A DNA stretch of 30,146 nt from an uncultured Aquincola sp. (GTDB taxonomy: Bacteria > Pseudomonadota > Gammaproteobacteria > Burkholderiales > Burkholderiaceae), in contig CAKZXL010000826.1 in assembly GCA_937883885.1 (NCBI GenBank), forward strand, positions 1 through 30,146. The letters run 5' to 3'. Made by a program: the position numbers and the translations under genes. The number at the start of each line of letters is the position of its first letter. Positions within the stretch are counted from its first letter, which is position 1. The notes beneath the pieces are model-generated. The model did not search any database, was not told the DNA's origin, and was given only the letters and a program-made list of their open reading frames with translations. Below, piece after piece: positions 1,998-29,717 of this stretch.

Positions 1998-2576
1998 ATG
2001 TCTAGACAACCCACACTGCGCCGCGCCGCGGCGGCTGCCGCGGTGGCCGCCTTCGCCCTGGGCGCCGCCACCGGTGCGCAGGCCATGGACCTGTCGGTGA
2101 ACTGGGGCAACCACGGCCCGGCCCGCCTGGCCCAGGCCAACCCGGGGCCGGAAGGGGCCTTCTTCACCGACGCATATGCCTTCAGCCTGGGCGCCGGCAG
2201 CTGGAACATCGCCAGCACCGTGGTGGCCAACGAGTTGATGCTGGGCGGCAATGCCGTGTACGCCATCATCGGCGGCGTCTACGGCCTCTATGCCGACCCC
2301 GACGGCACGCCCGAAAGCGGCGACGAGTCGCTGATCGGCACCGACAGCGCCTTCAACGGCACCACCGGCGAGCTGTCGATGCAGGCCACCGTGGGCCAGG
2401 GCCGCTACTACTACCTGGTCACCGGCCTGGCGGCGGGCTCGGCCGGCGGCGCCTACCAGCTCAGCTCGGCCGTGGCCGCGGTGCCCGAACCCGCTTCGGC
2501 CGCGTTGCTGCTGGCCGGAGCGGCAGTGGTCGGCGGCATCGCGCGCCGGCGCACACGCGGGCGCCGGCAGGCGTGA
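1998..2576 (+). CDS. PEP-CTERM sorting domain protein
   Basis: A 192-residue exported protein. The start is set by AGGAGA (1984-1989), 8 nt before ATG. Residues 1-29 are a signal peptide ending GAQA. The mature part resembles the FxDxF group of PEP-CTERM proteins (FFTDAYAFSLG at 55-65, YYYLVTGLAAGSAGG at 137-151). The C-terminus has the full sorting signal: VPEP at 162-165, a hydrophobic stretch 167-181, then the basic cluster ARRRTRGRR. By family knowledge such proteins are processed by an exosortase and often join exopolysaccharide or the cell surface. No exosortase is present in the window. Its stop overlaps the start of the downstream IclR gene, an unusual pairing. The role of the mature domain is unknown. 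Confidence 0.88.
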   Translation: MSRQPTLRRAAAAAAVAAFALGAATGAQAMDLSVNWGNHGPARLAQANPGPEGAFFTDAYAFSLGAGSWNIASTVVANELMLGGNAVYAIIGGVYGLYADPDGTPESGDESLIGTDSAFNGTTGELSMQATVGQGRYYYLVTGLAAGSAGGAYQLSSAVAAVPEPASAALLLAGAAVVGGIARRRTRGRRQA

Positions 2577-3391: not shown

Positions 3392-4045
3392 TCAGAACCG
3401 GTAGATCACGCTCACGCCGATCTGCGGAATGCCGCGCAGGCGCTCCACGTCGTCGCGGATGTCGTCCAGCTCACGGTCCACATCGGCCTGCGAGACGGTG
3501 TTGCTGAGCAGCGGCCCGCTCACCTGCCCGGTGACCTTGGGCTTGCCGAAGGCCAGGCCCAGGTCGACCATCACCCCCCAGCCGCCCACGGCCTGCGGCG
3601 GCTTGCCGAAGCCGATGCCCAGGTAGGGCATCACCGTCGGGTACTTCACCCGCACGTTCAGCTGGTCGTCGGGGCCGGCCACGTAGGTGCGGTCGCCGAT
3701 GGTGATGGTGGTGCCGTCGGCGCGGCCGGTCAGGCGCGCCTTGGCCTCGTTGACCGTCAGGCCGGCCGTGAGCCGGAAATTGCGGTGCACGTACCAGTCG
3801 CCGAAAAAGGCGAGTCGGTCGATCTGCACGCGGCCGTCGTAGTCCACGCCGGACTTGGAGCGGTCCCAGTCCAGCCGGCCCAGCGTGCTCACATCGGCAC
3901 GCAGGGTGAAGCGGTCGTCCACGGGGTGGGCATAACCCAGCGTCAGGCCGGGCAGGCCAGCGCCGAGGTACAGGTCGCCAGCATGGGCAGCGGTGGCGCC
4001 GCCCAGGGTCAGTGCGGCAAAGGTGGTGGCCAGCAAGGGCTTCAA
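3392..4045 (-). CDS. Small outer-membrane beta-barrel protein
   Basis: I place the start at a TTG (4045), which gives 217 residues. It is preceded at 6-nt spacing by GGAAAGG (4052-4058) and puts a clean signal peptide first (KPLLATTFAALTLGGATAAHA-GD). An upstream ATG at 4090 in the same frame would add 15 residues ending RHA and spoil the signal peptide. The mature part alternates polar and hydrophobic residues in short strands with Gly/aromatic turns (LYLGAGLPGLTLGY, LAFFGDWYV, PYLGIGFG). It ends in VIYRF, the terminal Phe expected of Bam-inserted barrels. A short helical stretch (SQADVDRELDDIRDDVERLRG) lies before the last strand. Similar proteins are annotated as OmpW- or CarO-like, but I cannot assign a substrate. 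It is divergent from the TonB receptor. Confidence 0.75.
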   Translation of the reverse strand: MKPLLATTFAALTLGGATAAHAGDLYLGAGLPGLTLGYAHPVDDRFTLRADVSTLGRLDWDRSKSGVDYDGRVQIDRLAFFGDWYVHRNFRLTAGLTVNEAKARLTGRADGTTITIGDRTYVAGPDDQLNVRVKYPTVMPYLGIGFGKPPQAVGGWGVMVDLGLAFGKPKVTGQVSGPLLSNTVSQADVDRELDDIRDDVERLRGIPQIGVSVIYRF

Positions 4046-4125
4046 GGCATGCCTTTCCAGCGGGCAACCGCGCCCGCGCACGCAGCGCATGGCAATCGCC
4101 GTACCGGCGCCACACCCGGCGCAGC

Positions 4126-20889: not shown

Positions 20890-21059
20890 GCGTGCGTTAC
20901 TCCTGCATCGCGCACCGCGGGCCGCGGCGCTGCTTGAGCCTGGTTCGGCAACCGACGTACCCGAGATGTTGCAAATCGGTAGCGGCACGCATGTCCAGCC
21001 GGCACGCGGTTTGCCCATGGATGGGCTGCAGTCACCTCCCCCAGCAGGCTTTCCTTTCC

Positions 21060-21377
21060 ATGCAGCGCACGCAGGCCACCCCCTGGTTCGACGGCGATCA
21101 AGAGCCCTTGCGAGAAGGCCCTTACCAGCGGCGTGCCCCCGCCGGCCCTTACAGCTGCTGGGCGCAGGGGCGTTGGTTCGGCGATGCCGCTTCGCCGCAG
21201 GCGGCTGCGGCCTCGCGGCGCGCCAGCCGCTGGCAGCACGCCGCCTGGCGCGGGCTGGCTGCTTCTTCCGGCCTGCCGTGCAGCACCTGCCGCGGCAGCA
21301 AGCTGATTGACCTCGGCTTCGACGAAGAAACCGGCGAGGACCGCATCAGCGACTGCATCGATTGCGAGCCGGCATGA
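21060..21377 (+). CDS. Small hypothetical protein with C-terminal CxxC pairs
   Basis: 105 residues, not assigned to a known family. The N-terminus is WFDGDQEPLREGPYQRR...YSCWAQGRWFGDA, a WxG/YxR pattern seen in small uncharacterised proteins. The middle is Ala/Arg-rich. The end is GLPCSTCRGSKLIDLGFDEETGEDRISDCIDCEPA, with two CxxC pairs 24 residues apart that could bind zinc. The start is the last in-frame ATG before the recognisable part; the site lacks a strong Shine-Dalgarno, so it is uncertain. The stop overlaps the next gene (ATGA), which supports its being real. It opens the cluster containing Ku. Confidence 0.6.
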   Translation: MQRTQATPWFDGDQEPLREGPYQRRAPAGPYSCWAQGRWFGDAASPQAAAASRRASRWQHAAWRGLAASSGLPCSTCRGSKLIDLGFDEETGEDRISDCIDCEPA

Positions 21378-21979
21378 GCCCCACGGTGCCCGTGGTCAGG
21401 GCGCTCGACCCCATCACCCGGCTGCCCAGCGCGCCCAGCTTCTTTCTGGCGCTGGAGCTGGCGGCCACCGAGGCGCAGCACACCGGCGACCGCTTGTCGG
21501 TGCTGGTGGTGGATGCCGACGCCTTCGATGCGCTGCGGGCCCGCGAGGGCGACGACGCGGCCGATGCCTCGCTCGACCTCATCGGCAAGGTGCTGCGGCT
21601 GGCCCTGGGCCCGCAGGCGGTGCTGGCGCGGCTGATCGGCGACCAGTTCGGCGTGATGCTGGCGCACACCGGCATCGAGCAGGCCCACCACCGGGCCGAA
21701 GCGCTGTGCCAGGCCATCGAGCTGGGCTTCCTGTCGCACCAGCGGCGGCTGACGGTCAGCATCGGCGTGGCCTGCGGACCGCACGCCGGCGACTGGACGG
21801 GCCAGCAGATGATCGGCCTGGCCAGCCGCCGCCGCGACCTGGCGCGTGCAGCCGGCGGCCACCGCGTGCAGTCGCACGGCCACCCGGGCCTGCCCGCCGA
21901 CCAGCACGACCACTGGCCCAGCTTCGGCCAGGACGACAGCGGGCTGCCGGCGCAGCCCGGCCAGCTCACCCTCTTTTGA
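21374..21979 (+). CDS. Degenerate GGDEF-domain protein
   Basis: 201 residues with one GGDEF-like domain and no sensor. DPITRLPSAPSFFLAL (12-27) matches the DxLTGLPNR beginning of GGDEF domains, LSVLVVDADAFDALRAREGDDAAD (41-64) the metal-binding strand region, and LTVSIGVACG the terminal strand. The signature itself is IGDQF at 88-92 instead of GGDEF, with the essential acidic residue replaced by Gln. There is no RxxD inhibitory site. It is therefore unlikely to make cyclic di-GMP and may be a nucleotide-binding or scaffold protein. The tail after ~165 is Pro/Gln/His-rich. ATG overlaps the preceding stop by 4 nt; Ku follows after 16 nt. Confidence 0.75.
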   Translation: MSPTVPVVRALDPITRLPSAPSFFLALELAATEAQHTGDRLSVLVVDADAFDALRAREGDDAADASLDLIGKVLRLALGPQAVLARLIGDQFGVMLAHTGIEQAHHRAEALCQAIELGFLSHQRRLTVSIGVACGPHAGDWTGQQMIGLASRRRDLARAAGGHRVQSHGHPGLPADQHDHWPSFGQDDSGLPAQPGQLTLF

Positions 21980-21995
21980 CGTTCGGAGAACCGCC

Positions 21996-22964
21996 ATGCC
22001 CCGCGTGATCTGGAAAGGCGCCATCAGCTTCGGCCTGGTGTACGTGCCCGTGGCCCTGTACCCCGGCGCGCAGGACACCGGCATCAGCTTCGACTGGCTG
22101 GACAAGCGCAGCATGGACCCGGTGGGCTACAAGCGCATCAACAAGCGCACCGGCAAGGAGATCGACAAGGACAACATCGTCAAGGGCCTGAAGCAGGACA
22201 CCGGCGACTACGTGATCCTGAGCGAAGACGAGATCAACGCCGCCTACCCCAAGAGCACGCAGGTCATCGAGATCGAGCACTTCGTCAAGGCCGACCAGAT
22301 CCCGTTCACCTACCTGGAAAAGCCCTACCTGCTGGCGCCGCTGGGCAAGGGCGAGAAGGTGTACGCCCTGCTGCGCGAAGCCATGATCGATGCCGGCGTG
22401 ATTGCCGTGGCCCGGGTGGTGATGCACACCAAGGAAAGCCTGGCGGCGCTGATCCCCGATGGCGATGCGCTGCTGATGAACACGCTGCGCTGGGCCAGCC
22501 AGGTGCGCTCGCGCGAGGAGCTGAAGCTGCCGCCTGCCGGCAAGAAGGCCGCCGGCCTGAAGGACGCCGAGCTGGCCATGGCCCAGCAGCTGATCGGCGA
22601 GATGGTGACCGACTGGGACCCCAGCCAGTACGAAGACCGCTTCAGCGATGCCATCCATGCACTGGCCGCGCGCAAGGTGGAAGCCGGCGAGACGGCGCAG
22701 GTGACGCCGCTGGAGAACCCCGACGAAGCCCCGGCCAGCTCGAACGTGGTGGACCTGAGCGACCTGCTGCGCCGCAGCCTGGCCGGCCGCAAGGGCGACG
22801 ACAAGCCCGCTGGCAAGACCAGCCGGCCGGCCACAGCAGCGCCAACCAGGACCGCTGCAAAGACGGCCGCCAGGCCCGCCGCCAAGGCCGCCCCCAAGCC
22901 GGCCGCCAAGAAGGCCGCCACCGCCAGGAGCGCCGCCCGCAAGCCCGCCCGGAAGGCCGCATGA
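21996..22964 (+). CDS. ku: Non-homologous end-joining protein Ku
   Basis: 322 residues. Start ATG follows CGGAGAA at 5-nt spacing. The core (1-~250) is standard bacterial Ku: [23 protein letters not shown] at the start, [38 protein letters not shown], and ALLREAM...[19 protein letters not shown]. It forms a homodimeric ring on double-strand DNA ends and recruits ligase LigD. No ligD is in the window. The C-terminal ~55 residues are a Lys/Ala/Pro-rich tail of AAK/PAAK units, like histone H1 or AlgP tails, expected to bind DNA without sequence preference. ATGA overlaps the next gene, so Ku and the flavoprotein are coupled. Confidence 0.95.
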
Positions 22965-27498: not shown

Positions 27499-27567
27499 GC
27501 CTCCTCGTCGCTCCTGGCGGTGATGCGCCGCCCCTGGTCGCAGCGATGGCAAACGCCTTGCCCGGCG

Positions 27568-28315: not shown

Positions 28316-28490
28316 GCTTGTTCGCAGGCAAATATTGACGCCGCCCTTGGGGCCTGCCGCGCGCCGGGCCGTGGCTTGGCTAGACAACTGCACCCGCTAA
28401 AGCGGCATGCGGGTTGCCGCCTGGCGATGCGGCCGGGCGCCTGACGGGCGGTACCGACCCTTCCCGCAACCCCGAGGAAAGGACACGGAG

Positions 28491-29717
28491 ATGACACAGC
28501 GCGACGATCAGAACCGATGGAACCAGGGCCAGCCGTCGCCAGGCGGTGGCCGCAGCGGCCAGCAAGGCGGCTGGGGCGACGAAGGCCATCGCGGTGGCCA
28601 GCAGGCCTGGGACTTCGGCGCCGGCCAGCAAGGCGGCGGCGGCCAGAACCAGGGCTACGGCCAGGGCGGCAATACCTACGGCACATCGCAGCCCGGCGAA
28701 GCCGGCTACGGCGGCGGCATGGGCCAGCACCAGGGCTACGGCCAAGGTGGCGGACAAGGCTACGGCCAGGGCGGACAAAGCCAGGGCGGCTACGGCCAAA
28801 GCCAGCGACAAGGCGGCTATGGCCAAGAGCAGGGCTATGGGCAGAGCCAGGGCTATGGCCAGGGCTATGGTCAAAGCCAGCACCAGGGCTATGGTCAGGG
28901 CCAGGGCCGCGACCAGGGCTATGGCCAGTCACAGGGCTACGGCCAGGGAGGCTACGGTGGCTACGGCCAAGGTGGCCAGGCCGGCTTCGGGCAGGGCAGC
29001 CAGGGCATGCCCGGCGGCTATGCCTCGCAAGGCGGCTACGGCTCGCACCAGGGCTCGCCTTATGGCGCGCAGGGCGGGCAGCAGCAGGCCCCGCAAGGCG
29101 GCGGCATGCCCACCCACTGGCAGCAGGACCAACGCCAGGGCTACGGCCAAGGCCATCAAAGCCAGGGCCACAGCCAGGGGCAGGGCCAAGGGCACGAGCA
29201 GCAGCACTTCGACCCCGACTACCACCAGTGGCGCAGCGAACAGATGCGCAACCTGGACGACGACTACCAGGCCTGGCGGCAGGACCGCTACAAGAAGTTC
29301 TCGGACGAGTTCACGCAGTGGCGCGGCAACCGCAAGGCGGGCGGCAGCAACACCAGCGCCGGCAGCAGCAGCGGGCTCACCAGCGGCATGGGCACGGGCT
29401 CATCCGACGGTGGCGGCGGCGAGCATTCCAGCACCCGCAGCTCCCAGGGATCGTCCAGCAGCGGCAGCAGCCTGACCGGCGGCAGCAGCCCGTCGTCCAC
29501 CTCGGGCATGGGCAGCGTGGGCGCCTCGGGCAGCGCATCGTCCGGCAGCGGCTCGTCGCCCAGCAGCAGCTCGGCCGGCAGCCACGGCGCCACCTCCAGC
29601 GGCAGCCTGCACGGCAGCGCCTCGGGCAGCAGCCCGGGCGGCGCGGGCCTGTCGGGCAGCAGCGGCACGGGCTCCGGCCTGACCGGCAGCGGCAGCGACA
29701 GCAGCAAGAGCCGCTGA
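28491..29717 (+). CDS. GYGQ-repeat, prion-like low-complexity protein
   Basis: 408 residues, from ATG 28491 with AAAGGA at 7-nt spacing. No signal peptide or membrane segment, so cytoplasmic. Three parts are visible. Residues 1-235 are Gly/Gln/Tyr-rich with 13 GYGQ units in a background of QGG, SQG and QHQ, containing almost no aliphatic residues; this resembles the SYGQ-rich domains of FUS/EWS. Residues 240-279 are a charged aromatic core with a repeated pattern ([36 protein letters not shown], given here as DYxxWR, DYxxWRxxRYxxF, FTQWR). Residues 283-408 are almost only Ser and Gly. I recognise no enzyme. The composition suggests an intrinsically disordered protein able to self-associate. 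Divergent from the phosphorelay genes. Existence as a gene is supported by the SD site and consistent frame use. Confidence 0.85.
28660..29150 (+). repeat. Degenerate GGCTAYGGYCAR repeat inside the GYGQ gene
   Basis: The codons for GYGQ recur as GGCTAYGGNCAR in 13 places with spacings that are multiples of 3 but otherwise irregular (6 to about 190 bases). Third positions vary (TAC/TAT, CAG/CAA, GGC/GGT/GGG), which shows the repeat is kept at protein level and is not a recent DNA slippage product. The densest part is 28790-28960. Confidence 0.8.

What the first reader, a model, noticed from the sequence alone, without database searches (positions are those of the whole stretch)
28491..29717. 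Bacterial FUS/EWS-like prion-like protein
Residues 1-235 carry 13 GYGQ units in a Gly/Gln/Ser/Tyr background nearly free of aliphatic residues. This is the tyrosine-spaced composition that drives condensate or fibre formation in eukaryotic FUS-family proteins. Bacterial proteins of this kind are rarely described. It is cytoplasmic by sequence, has a strong ribosome site, and uses varied synonymous codons for the repeat, so the repeat is selected as protein. It may form a stress-dependent condensate.
Basis: partly seen in the sequence, partly recalled or inferred. Interest (0 to 1): 0.78.

Follow-up and report, generated by a model that had tools for sequence, protein, structure and literature searches.

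The report
Tyrosine-spaced disordered bacterial helix protein
This bacterial gene makes a long floppy protein with evenly spaced tyrosines attached to one conserved aromatic helix; it belongs to an unnamed family, mostly in Burkholderiales, that often has a sigma-54 type promoter and may form stress-linked droplets or gels inside the cell.

Summary
The module defines a family without Pfam or NCBIfam model, mainly in Burkholderiales. The arm is kept in 77 of 79 locus proteins, its aromatics evenly spaced in 75 of 75 arms tested. GYGQ itself is not conserved: the same-position congener orthologue has one. A -24/-12 sigma-54 type element stands before 44 of 81 family genes, 0.86 expected in shuffles, including this one (28404-28417). 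In 22 of 80 loci an rpoN gene lies tail-to-tail with the gene. Best reading: a sigma-54-controlled cytoplasmic sticker-and-spacer scaffold whose helix self-associates; condensation is inferred, not shown. It resembles a FUS arm in design but is not a FET-family member. Main rival: a soluble hydrophilin-like protectant.

The parts
28404..28417 (+). -24/-12 (sigma-54/RpoN type) promoter element GGCATGCGGGTTGC; start of transcription expected about 12 bases further (inferred)
   Evidence: Pattern GG[ACT]A-N6-TTGC at -40..-260 before 44 of 81 family genes, Markov shuffles mean 0.86; position; core kept at the same distance (-87) in the congener G084
28474..28483 (+). ribosome-binding site GAGGAAAGGA
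   Evidence: read from sequence; same letters in G084, GAAAGGA kept in L001
28491..29717 (+). gene for the 408-aa protein; start at 28491, not the in-frame ATG at 28407, which lies within the promoter element
   Evidence: N-terminus [10 protein letters not shown] shared with the G084 orthologue
28491..29207 (+). arm, residues 1-239, G/Q/Y-rich, predicted disordered, 25 evenly spaced aromatics
28653..28970 (+). GYGQ block, residues 55-160 (12 of the 13 units), largely a lineage-specific expansion
   Evidence: mostly absent from the orthologue in G084; tandem array 28830-28948, period 30
29208..29339 (+). conserved module, residues 240-283: 2.5 copies of a 15-residue repeat ([DS]-x-[DE]-[YF]-x-x-W-R-x-x-[QR]); predicted single helix 242-285
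29346..29714 (+). Ser/Gly-rich tail, residues 286-408, predicted disordered

Best explanation
A sigma-54-transcribed, cytoplasmic, intrinsically disordered scaffold protein. The 44-residue aromatic helix (2.5 x 15-residue repeat) is the specificity and self-association unit. The long G/Q/Y arm carries evenly spaced aromatic stickers in a polar spacer. Together they give a multivalent protein that condenses or gels when the gene is switched on, probably in the transition to a stressed, surface-attached or drying state. SHOWN by computation: module, repeat period, predicted helix, low model confidence elsewhere, arm conservation, aromatic spacing, promoter element in the family. INFERRED: RpoN actually drives it; the helix self-associates; the arm condenses; the stress context. 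The 13 GYGQ units are this lineage's local way of building the arm, not a defining feature.
For: Arm retained in 77 of 79 locus proteins. Tyr median 8.5 per 100 residues; aromatic spacing more even than shuffles in 75 of 75 arms, mean z -2.59, 66 below -1.64. Module: conservation and hydrophobicity peak at period 3.75-3.8 (permutation 0.0005 and 0.0025) and the column profile self-matches at lag 15 (0.364, next best of lags 5-23 is 0.126). AF2: helix 242-285, block pLDDT 92-96 for residues 241-280, 333 of 408 residues below 50. Promoter element 44 of 81 vs 0.86 in shuffles (maximum 5 in 100 runs), 7 on the reverse strand, other spacings 0-2, 17 of 191 before neighbouring genes; 31 of 47 groups hold at least one after grouping similar upstream regions. 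Convergent rpoN 50-225 bp away in 22 of 80 loci, 20 of these 22 with the element, against 24 of the other 59; 16 of 19 rpoN-adjacent genomes searched (of the 22) carry at least two rpoN copies. Neighbours in other lineages: DUF4142, glycosyltransferases, hemerythrin.
Against: No experiment, expression data or condensate predictor. Even aromatic spacing also follows from any short repeat built on GYG, so it is not proof of sticker selection. The window arm has 7 Arg and no Lys in 239, so the Tyr-Arg pairing recalled for FET proteins is mostly absent here. Between window and G084 the later arm changes freely (residues 166-239: 24 non-synonymous, 8 synonymous codon differences in 63; module 4 and 7 in 46). 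The family is patchy: 22 of 150 genomes of the taxonomic family, 9 of 398 of the phylum, one of the nine unconvincing. The promoter pattern was picked from the same upstream regions it was then counted in; it differs from the textbook consensus (no T before GG in 44 sites; C after TTGC in 35 of 44); 37 of 81 genes lack it, among them most Ramlibacter and Variovorax type loci; it also stands before 7 of 23 rpoN and 3 of 8 YihY-type genes; and across the whole window 7 matches against 3.6 expected is not significant. In A. tertiaricarbonis (L001) the match lies at -56, not at -87. Neighbourhoods vary widely; in the congeners G001 and G084 no rpoN lies by the gene.
Confidence: 0.45

Rival explanations
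1. Hydrophilin/LEA-like soluble protectant: the glycine-rich, hydrophilic chain shields other proteins during drying or osmotic stress without forming a condensate; the helix folds on partners or membranes.
For: Gly >6% and GRAVY < -1 in 79 of 80 family proteins, window 30.1% and -1.33. Other genes of the window fit stress survival: GlgE, GlgB-like and trehalose-synthase-like genes and Ku. Ramlibacter, where the family is common, includes a desiccation-tolerant species (PMC3164672, passages).
Against: The third published criterion, mean hydrophilicity >1 (PMC4190154, passages), is met by 0 of 80; window 0.07 (scale recalled). High Tyr/Trp content and an aromatic helix are unlike typical hydrophilins (recalled).
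Confidence: 0.27
2. The helix module is the working part (binding a protein or nucleic-acid partner) and the arm and tail are entropic linkers or brushes; GYGQ growth is near-neutral repeat slippage.
For: The module is the only part that aligns throughout the family; 13 GYGQ vs 1 in the same-position congener; TAT run in the array; free change in the later arm; distant relatives join the module to an SWFGD domain (L094, L096, L097) and L094 to DUF2171.
Against: Arm composition, with Tyr, is kept in 77 of 79 although the window's DNA is 70.5% GC; aromatics evenly spaced in 75 of 75.
Confidence: 0.2
3. Surface or extracellular structural protein (cyst coat, biofilm matrix).
For: Glycosyltransferase genes follow the gene in several loci; sigma-54 has been linked to the bacterial exterior (PMC3162934, abstract and outline).
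Against: No signal peptide or hydrophobic segment. Secretion genes were not searched for specifically.
Confidence: 0.06

Closest known systems
FET family low-complexity arms (FUS, EWS, TAF15)
   Same: Tyr-spaced G/Q/S-type low-complexity arm, aromatics evenly spread, next to a conserved part
   Different: No RRM, RanBP2-type zinc finger (no Pfam domain) or RGG-box region; Gly rather than Ser dominates the arm; bacterial; no PDB chain at E<1. FET features are recalled
SWFGD domain / DUF2171 proteins (NF033157, PF09939)
   Same: Share the D-Y-x-x-W-R helix module (L094, L096, L097: E 2.5e-15, 4.8e-11, 1.9e-9 per genome) and a G/R/D/Y-rich arm
   Different: The window protein has neither SWFGD nor DUF2171 and ends in a Ser/Gly tail
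Hydrophilins / LEA-like proteins
   Same: Gly-rich, GRAVY < -1, predicted disordered
   Different: Mean hydrophilicity far below 1; aromatic-rich; conserved helix
Bacterial prion-like proteins (e.g. Clostridium botulinum Rho)
   Same: Low-complexity Gln-containing domain in a cytoplasmic bacterial protein; the passage of PMC4606120 seen notes that prion-like domains can also be rich in Gly, Ser and Tyr as in FUS
   Different: Gly/Tyr-spaced arm next to a 15-residue-repeat helix. The main texts of the surveys PMC6400439 and PMC4606120 hold no word beginning Burkholder; their supplements were not searched

Membership tests
FET family (FUS/EWS/TAF15) | RNA-recognition motif and RanBP2-type zinc finger (recalled) | tested here: not met
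   No Pfam family at E<=1
FET family (FUS/EWS/TAF15) | Tyr-rich [GS]Y[GS]Q-type low-complexity arm (recalled) | tested here: met
   13 GYGQ, 19 Tyr in 239 residues
FET family (FUS/EWS/TAF15) | Phase separation of the arm | not testable with these tools
   needs purified protein or imaging
Hydrophilins | Gly >6% and GRAVY < -1 | tested here: met
   30.1%, -1.33; 79 of 80 in the family; criteria from PMC4190154
Hydrophilins | Mean hydrophilicity >1 | tested here: not met
   0.07; 0 of 80 above 1
SWFGD / DUF2171 proteins | SWFGD domain (NF033157) or DUF2171 (PF09939) | tested here: not met
   present in distant relatives
Unnamed [14 protein letters not shown] family (Burkholderiales) | 44-residue module with D-Y-x-x-W-R ... 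Y-x-x-W-R ... F-x-x-W-R | tested here: met
   E 3e-18 to 1e-10 to 22 proteins; 22 invariant module positions in 23 sequences
Unnamed [14 protein letters not shown] family (Burkholderiales) | Long G/Q/Y/S arm before the module | tested here: met
   77 of 79 locus proteins; window arm 239 residues
Sigma-54 regulon | GG-N10-GC element upstream (consensus recalled) | tested here: met
   28404-28417; 44 of 81 in the family
Sigma-54 regulon | Transcription depends on RpoN and an enhancer-binding activator | not testable with these tools
   no expression data

The most novel reading that the evidence does not exclude
A family of sigma-54-controlled proteins, centred on Burkholderiales, that have independently reached the FUS design: an evenly tyrosine-spaced arm plus an oligomerising 15-residue-repeat aromatic helix, forming a switchable cytoplasmic condensate that accompanies an rpoN2-type programme of stress survival and envelope polysaccharide making.
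Probability: 0.3. Interest if true: 0.82.

Novelty: new variant of a known kind. Interest (0 to 1): 0.6.

Why it matters
If right, it gives bacterial cell biology a dedicated, transcriptionally switched sticker-and-spacer protein family with large natural variation in arm length, Tyr and Arg content over one constant helix: a ready-made evolutionary series for testing which sequence features drive condensation in a cytoplasm. It also gives a concrete clue to what the second rpoN of many Burkholderiales may control.

Tried and rejected
Tried without result: Pfam and NCBIfam on the window protein and Pfam on all 23 members of A1 (nothing); NCBIfam on six further family members, one weak match far below its cut-off; PDB by profile and by single sequence (one chance hit at E 6.9); plasmids, megablast (none); arm alone, residues 40-239 (none at 1e-5 among the 7993 candidates scored). 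A fold search of the model was not made: a single helix would match too much to mean anything.

Rejected or set aside: the neighbouring hybrid kinase and LuxR-type regulator as general partners: close homologues (63-86% identity) lie beside the gene only in L001 and G084 of the loci compared, though more distant hybrid kinases lie in the loci of 13 relatives; a translation start at 28407, because it lies inside the promoter element; FET membership; a module-DUF4142 fusion (P0079), more likely a frameshifted join with the downstream DUF4142 gene usual in Ramlibacter (my reading).

Rows dropped: L061 gave no protein by my pattern, so locus counts are of 79 (80 with the window, 81 with L099 as well). 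The aromatic-spacing test dropped 5 of 80 arms by a filter on high Ala, high I/L/V or length under 120, meant to remove misread starts. Only 80 of 139 relatives were returned and 120 of 171 protein hits listed. Starts of relatives were chosen by script, so some upstream regions and arms may be misplaced. The rpoN count was made on 19 of the 22 rpoN-adjacent loci plus two congeners.

Full report
OBSERVATION. The ORF at 28491-29717 (+) encodes 408 residues with 13 GYGQ units; shuffling residues 1-239 gives 0.64 on average and at most 4 in 5000 runs. The arm (1-239) is G 36.4%, Q 25.5%, Y 7.9%, S 5.9%, without I, L, V or C. The tail (286-408) is S 42%, G 27%. There is no hydrophobic segment.

THE MISSED MODULE. 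Between arm and tail lies [40 protein letters not shown] search with residues 236-288 found 22 proteins, E 3e-18 to 1e-10; window and hits share 22 invariant module positions. A profile search gave 171 proteins among 7992 candidates scored, 120 listed. Across 113 distinct modules the column profile matches itself at a lag of 15 (0.364; next best of lags 5-23 is 0.126) and conservation has period 3.75-3.8 (permutation 0.0005). So the module is 2.5 copies of a 15-residue unit with an aromatic face. AlphaFold2 with 23 sequences predicts one helix, 242-285, with block pLDDT 92-96 over residues 241-280, and 333 of 408 residues below 50. Low pLDDT agrees with disorder but does not measure it. Neither Pfam nor NCBIfam has a model that matches the window protein; Pfam finds none in the 23 members of A1.

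DISTRIBUTION. A scan of one genome per species gave 139 relatives, 80 kept; by record title 76 of the 80 are Burkholderiales (Ramlibacter, Roseateles/Pelomonas, Rubrivivax, Variovorax, Comamonas, Rhizobacter and others; orders recalled), the others being titled Rhodocyclaceae, Methylotenera, Gulbenkiania and Dactylopiibacterium. 22 of 150 genomes of the taxonomic family and 9 of 398 of the phylum match, the weakest of the nine (E 7e-4) being no convincing relative; most matching genomes have one copy. Distant relatives L094, L096 and L097 join the module to an SWFGD domain (NF033157), and L094 to DUF2171 (sequences).

HOW THE ARM EVOLVES. The G084 orthologue is 239 residues with the same N-terminus but one GYGQ and a short tail; L001 also has one. 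So the GYGQ block (residues 55-160) is largely a lineage-specific expansion. Its synonymous variation (TAC 7/TAT 6, CAG 7/CAA 6) is real, yet the six TAT units are consecutive, as local duplication leaves them. Between window and G084 the early arm (1-75) has 12 synonymous and 7 non-synonymous codon differences in 64, the late arm (166-239) 8 and 24 in 63, the module 7 and 4 in 46: the late arm is free in sequence. Across the family GYGQ counts are 0 in 44 of 80 arms, 1-7 in 35, and 13 here. What is kept is the arm: 77 of 79 locus proteins have at least 100 residues with GQYS >= 40% and Tyr >= 2%. In the metagenome-wide protein set 103 of 119 pass a looser cut (GQYS >= 35%); of the 16 that fail, 10 have fewer than 100 residues before the module and 6 fall below the composition cut; one further protein without the pattern was left out. 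Aromatics are spread more evenly than in shuffles in 75 of 75 arms, mean z -2.59. Repeats built on GYG produce some of this by themselves. Arm GC3 is lower than that of module plus tail in 74 of 79, so mixed codons in the arm are a family trait.

REGULATION. A search for spaced tetramer pairs in 80 upstream regions (320 bp) brought up GGAA-N6-TTGC in 22 regions, among GC-rich pairs such as CGGC-N2-CGGC (25); the commonest pair in each of five shuffled sets reached 15-17. GGCA-N6-TTGC (15) does not exceed shuffles by itself. GG-N10-GC is the -24/-12 layout of sigma-54 promoters (consensus recalled). A consensus score gave 25 of 81 regions at 6 or more of 8, against 5 on the reverse strand, 2.6 in shuffles and 5.2 in random windows of the same loci. 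The pattern GG[ACT]A-N6-TTGC, chosen from these results, stands at -40 to -260 in 44 of 81; Markov shuffles mean 0.86, maximum 5 in 100; reverse strand 7; spacings of 3, 4, 5, 7, 8 and 9 give 0-2; upstream of twelve groups of neighbouring genes 17 of 191, with 7 of 23 before rpoN itself and 3 of 8 before the YihY-type gene. The pattern and the count share their data, but the sharp dependence on spacing and strand does not follow from the choice of letters. Grouping similar upstream regions leaves 31 of 47 groups with at least one element; 39 of 44 sites lie at -52 to -148. In 22 of 80 loci an rpoN gene lies tail-to-tail 50-225 bp away; 20 of those 22 have the element, against 24 of the other 59. 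Of 21 genomes searched (19 of the 22 rpoN-adjacent ones plus two congeners) 18 have two or more rpoN copies, 16 of the 19. The window's element is at 28404-28417, at the same distance in G084 with its core kept; in L001 a match lies nearer the start, at -56. Most Ramlibacter-type loci lack it; 13 loci have GTCCTACA and GTCCGACA 13-14 bases apart instead.

CONTEXT. Neighbours change with lineage: ZIP transporter before and DUF4142 genes after (Ramlibacter type), glycosyltransferases and an amidohydrolase (Roseateles/Pelomonas), hemerythrin. In the window: GlgE and related alpha-glucan genes, Ku, DUF1232, a hybrid kinase and a LuxR-type regulator. Stress survival is the common impression, not a test.

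MECHANISM. Likeliest: sigma-54 dependent expression; self-association of the aromatic helix; arm-arm contacts through spaced Tyr/Trp; a condensate or gel as scaffold or protectant. Only the sequence side is shown. The hydrophilin reading is the main rival; two of three published criteria are met (79 of 80) and the third fails (0 of 80).

LITERATURE. Seven searches listed no paper that I recognised as describing this family; only listings and the papers named here were looked at, and the library lacks most subscription journals. The main texts of PMC6400439 and PMC4606120 hold no word beginning Burkholder (passages). PMC3162934 (abstract and outline) links sigma-54 with exopolysaccharides and the cell exterior; PMC4371752 (listing only) reports two rpoN genes in Ralstonia; PMC3164672 (passages) describes trehalose-centred desiccation tolerance in Ramlibacter tataouinensis and has no occurrence of hydrophil- or rpoN.

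VERDICT. A real, conserved protein family, undescribed as far as these searches go, with a FUS-like arm design but no FET kinship; the GYGQ number is its least conserved feature, the helix and the promoter the most informative.

Noticed in passing
window 20948-20961 (-) and 21001-21014 (+): Two divergent GG[ACT]A-N6-TTGC elements before glgB (true start probably near 20890, inferred) and toward the GGDEF/Ku side; the glgB-side 18-mer is identical in G084 and the other's core is kept, so the glucan operon may share the sigma-54 control.
   Followed up: partly
window 27548-27562: Inverted repeat GGCAA-N5-TTGCC between the regulator and kinase genes, with counterparts in both congeners; possibly the regulator's own site.
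   Followed up: no
L013, L014, L018, L019, L020, L022, L035, L036, L040, L060, L070, L076, L078 upstream of the family gene: These 13 loci, mostly Ramlibacter, carry GTCCTACA and GTCCGACA 13-14 bases apart, in most followed by CCTA some 15-20 bases on: a different promoter or operator, owner unknown.
   Followed up: partly
22 loci, e.g. L054, L050, L072: An rpoN gene, usually one of two or more in the genome, lies tail-to-tail with the family gene, with a hemerythrin gene nearby in several of these loci.
   Followed up: partly
window 21362-22961 (+): GGDEF domain protein followed by Ku (non-homologous end joining) beside the GlgE/GlgB cluster.
   Followed up: no
window 3392-4090 (-): ORF that by eye looks like a secreted outer-membrane protein, without Pfam match, with a -24/-12-like element at 4092-4105 (-) at its first ATG, so the true start is probably downstream.
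   Followed up: no
window 1998-2576 (+): PEP-CTERM protein, a sorting signal usually tied to exopolysaccharide-producing bacteria (recalled).
   Followed up: no
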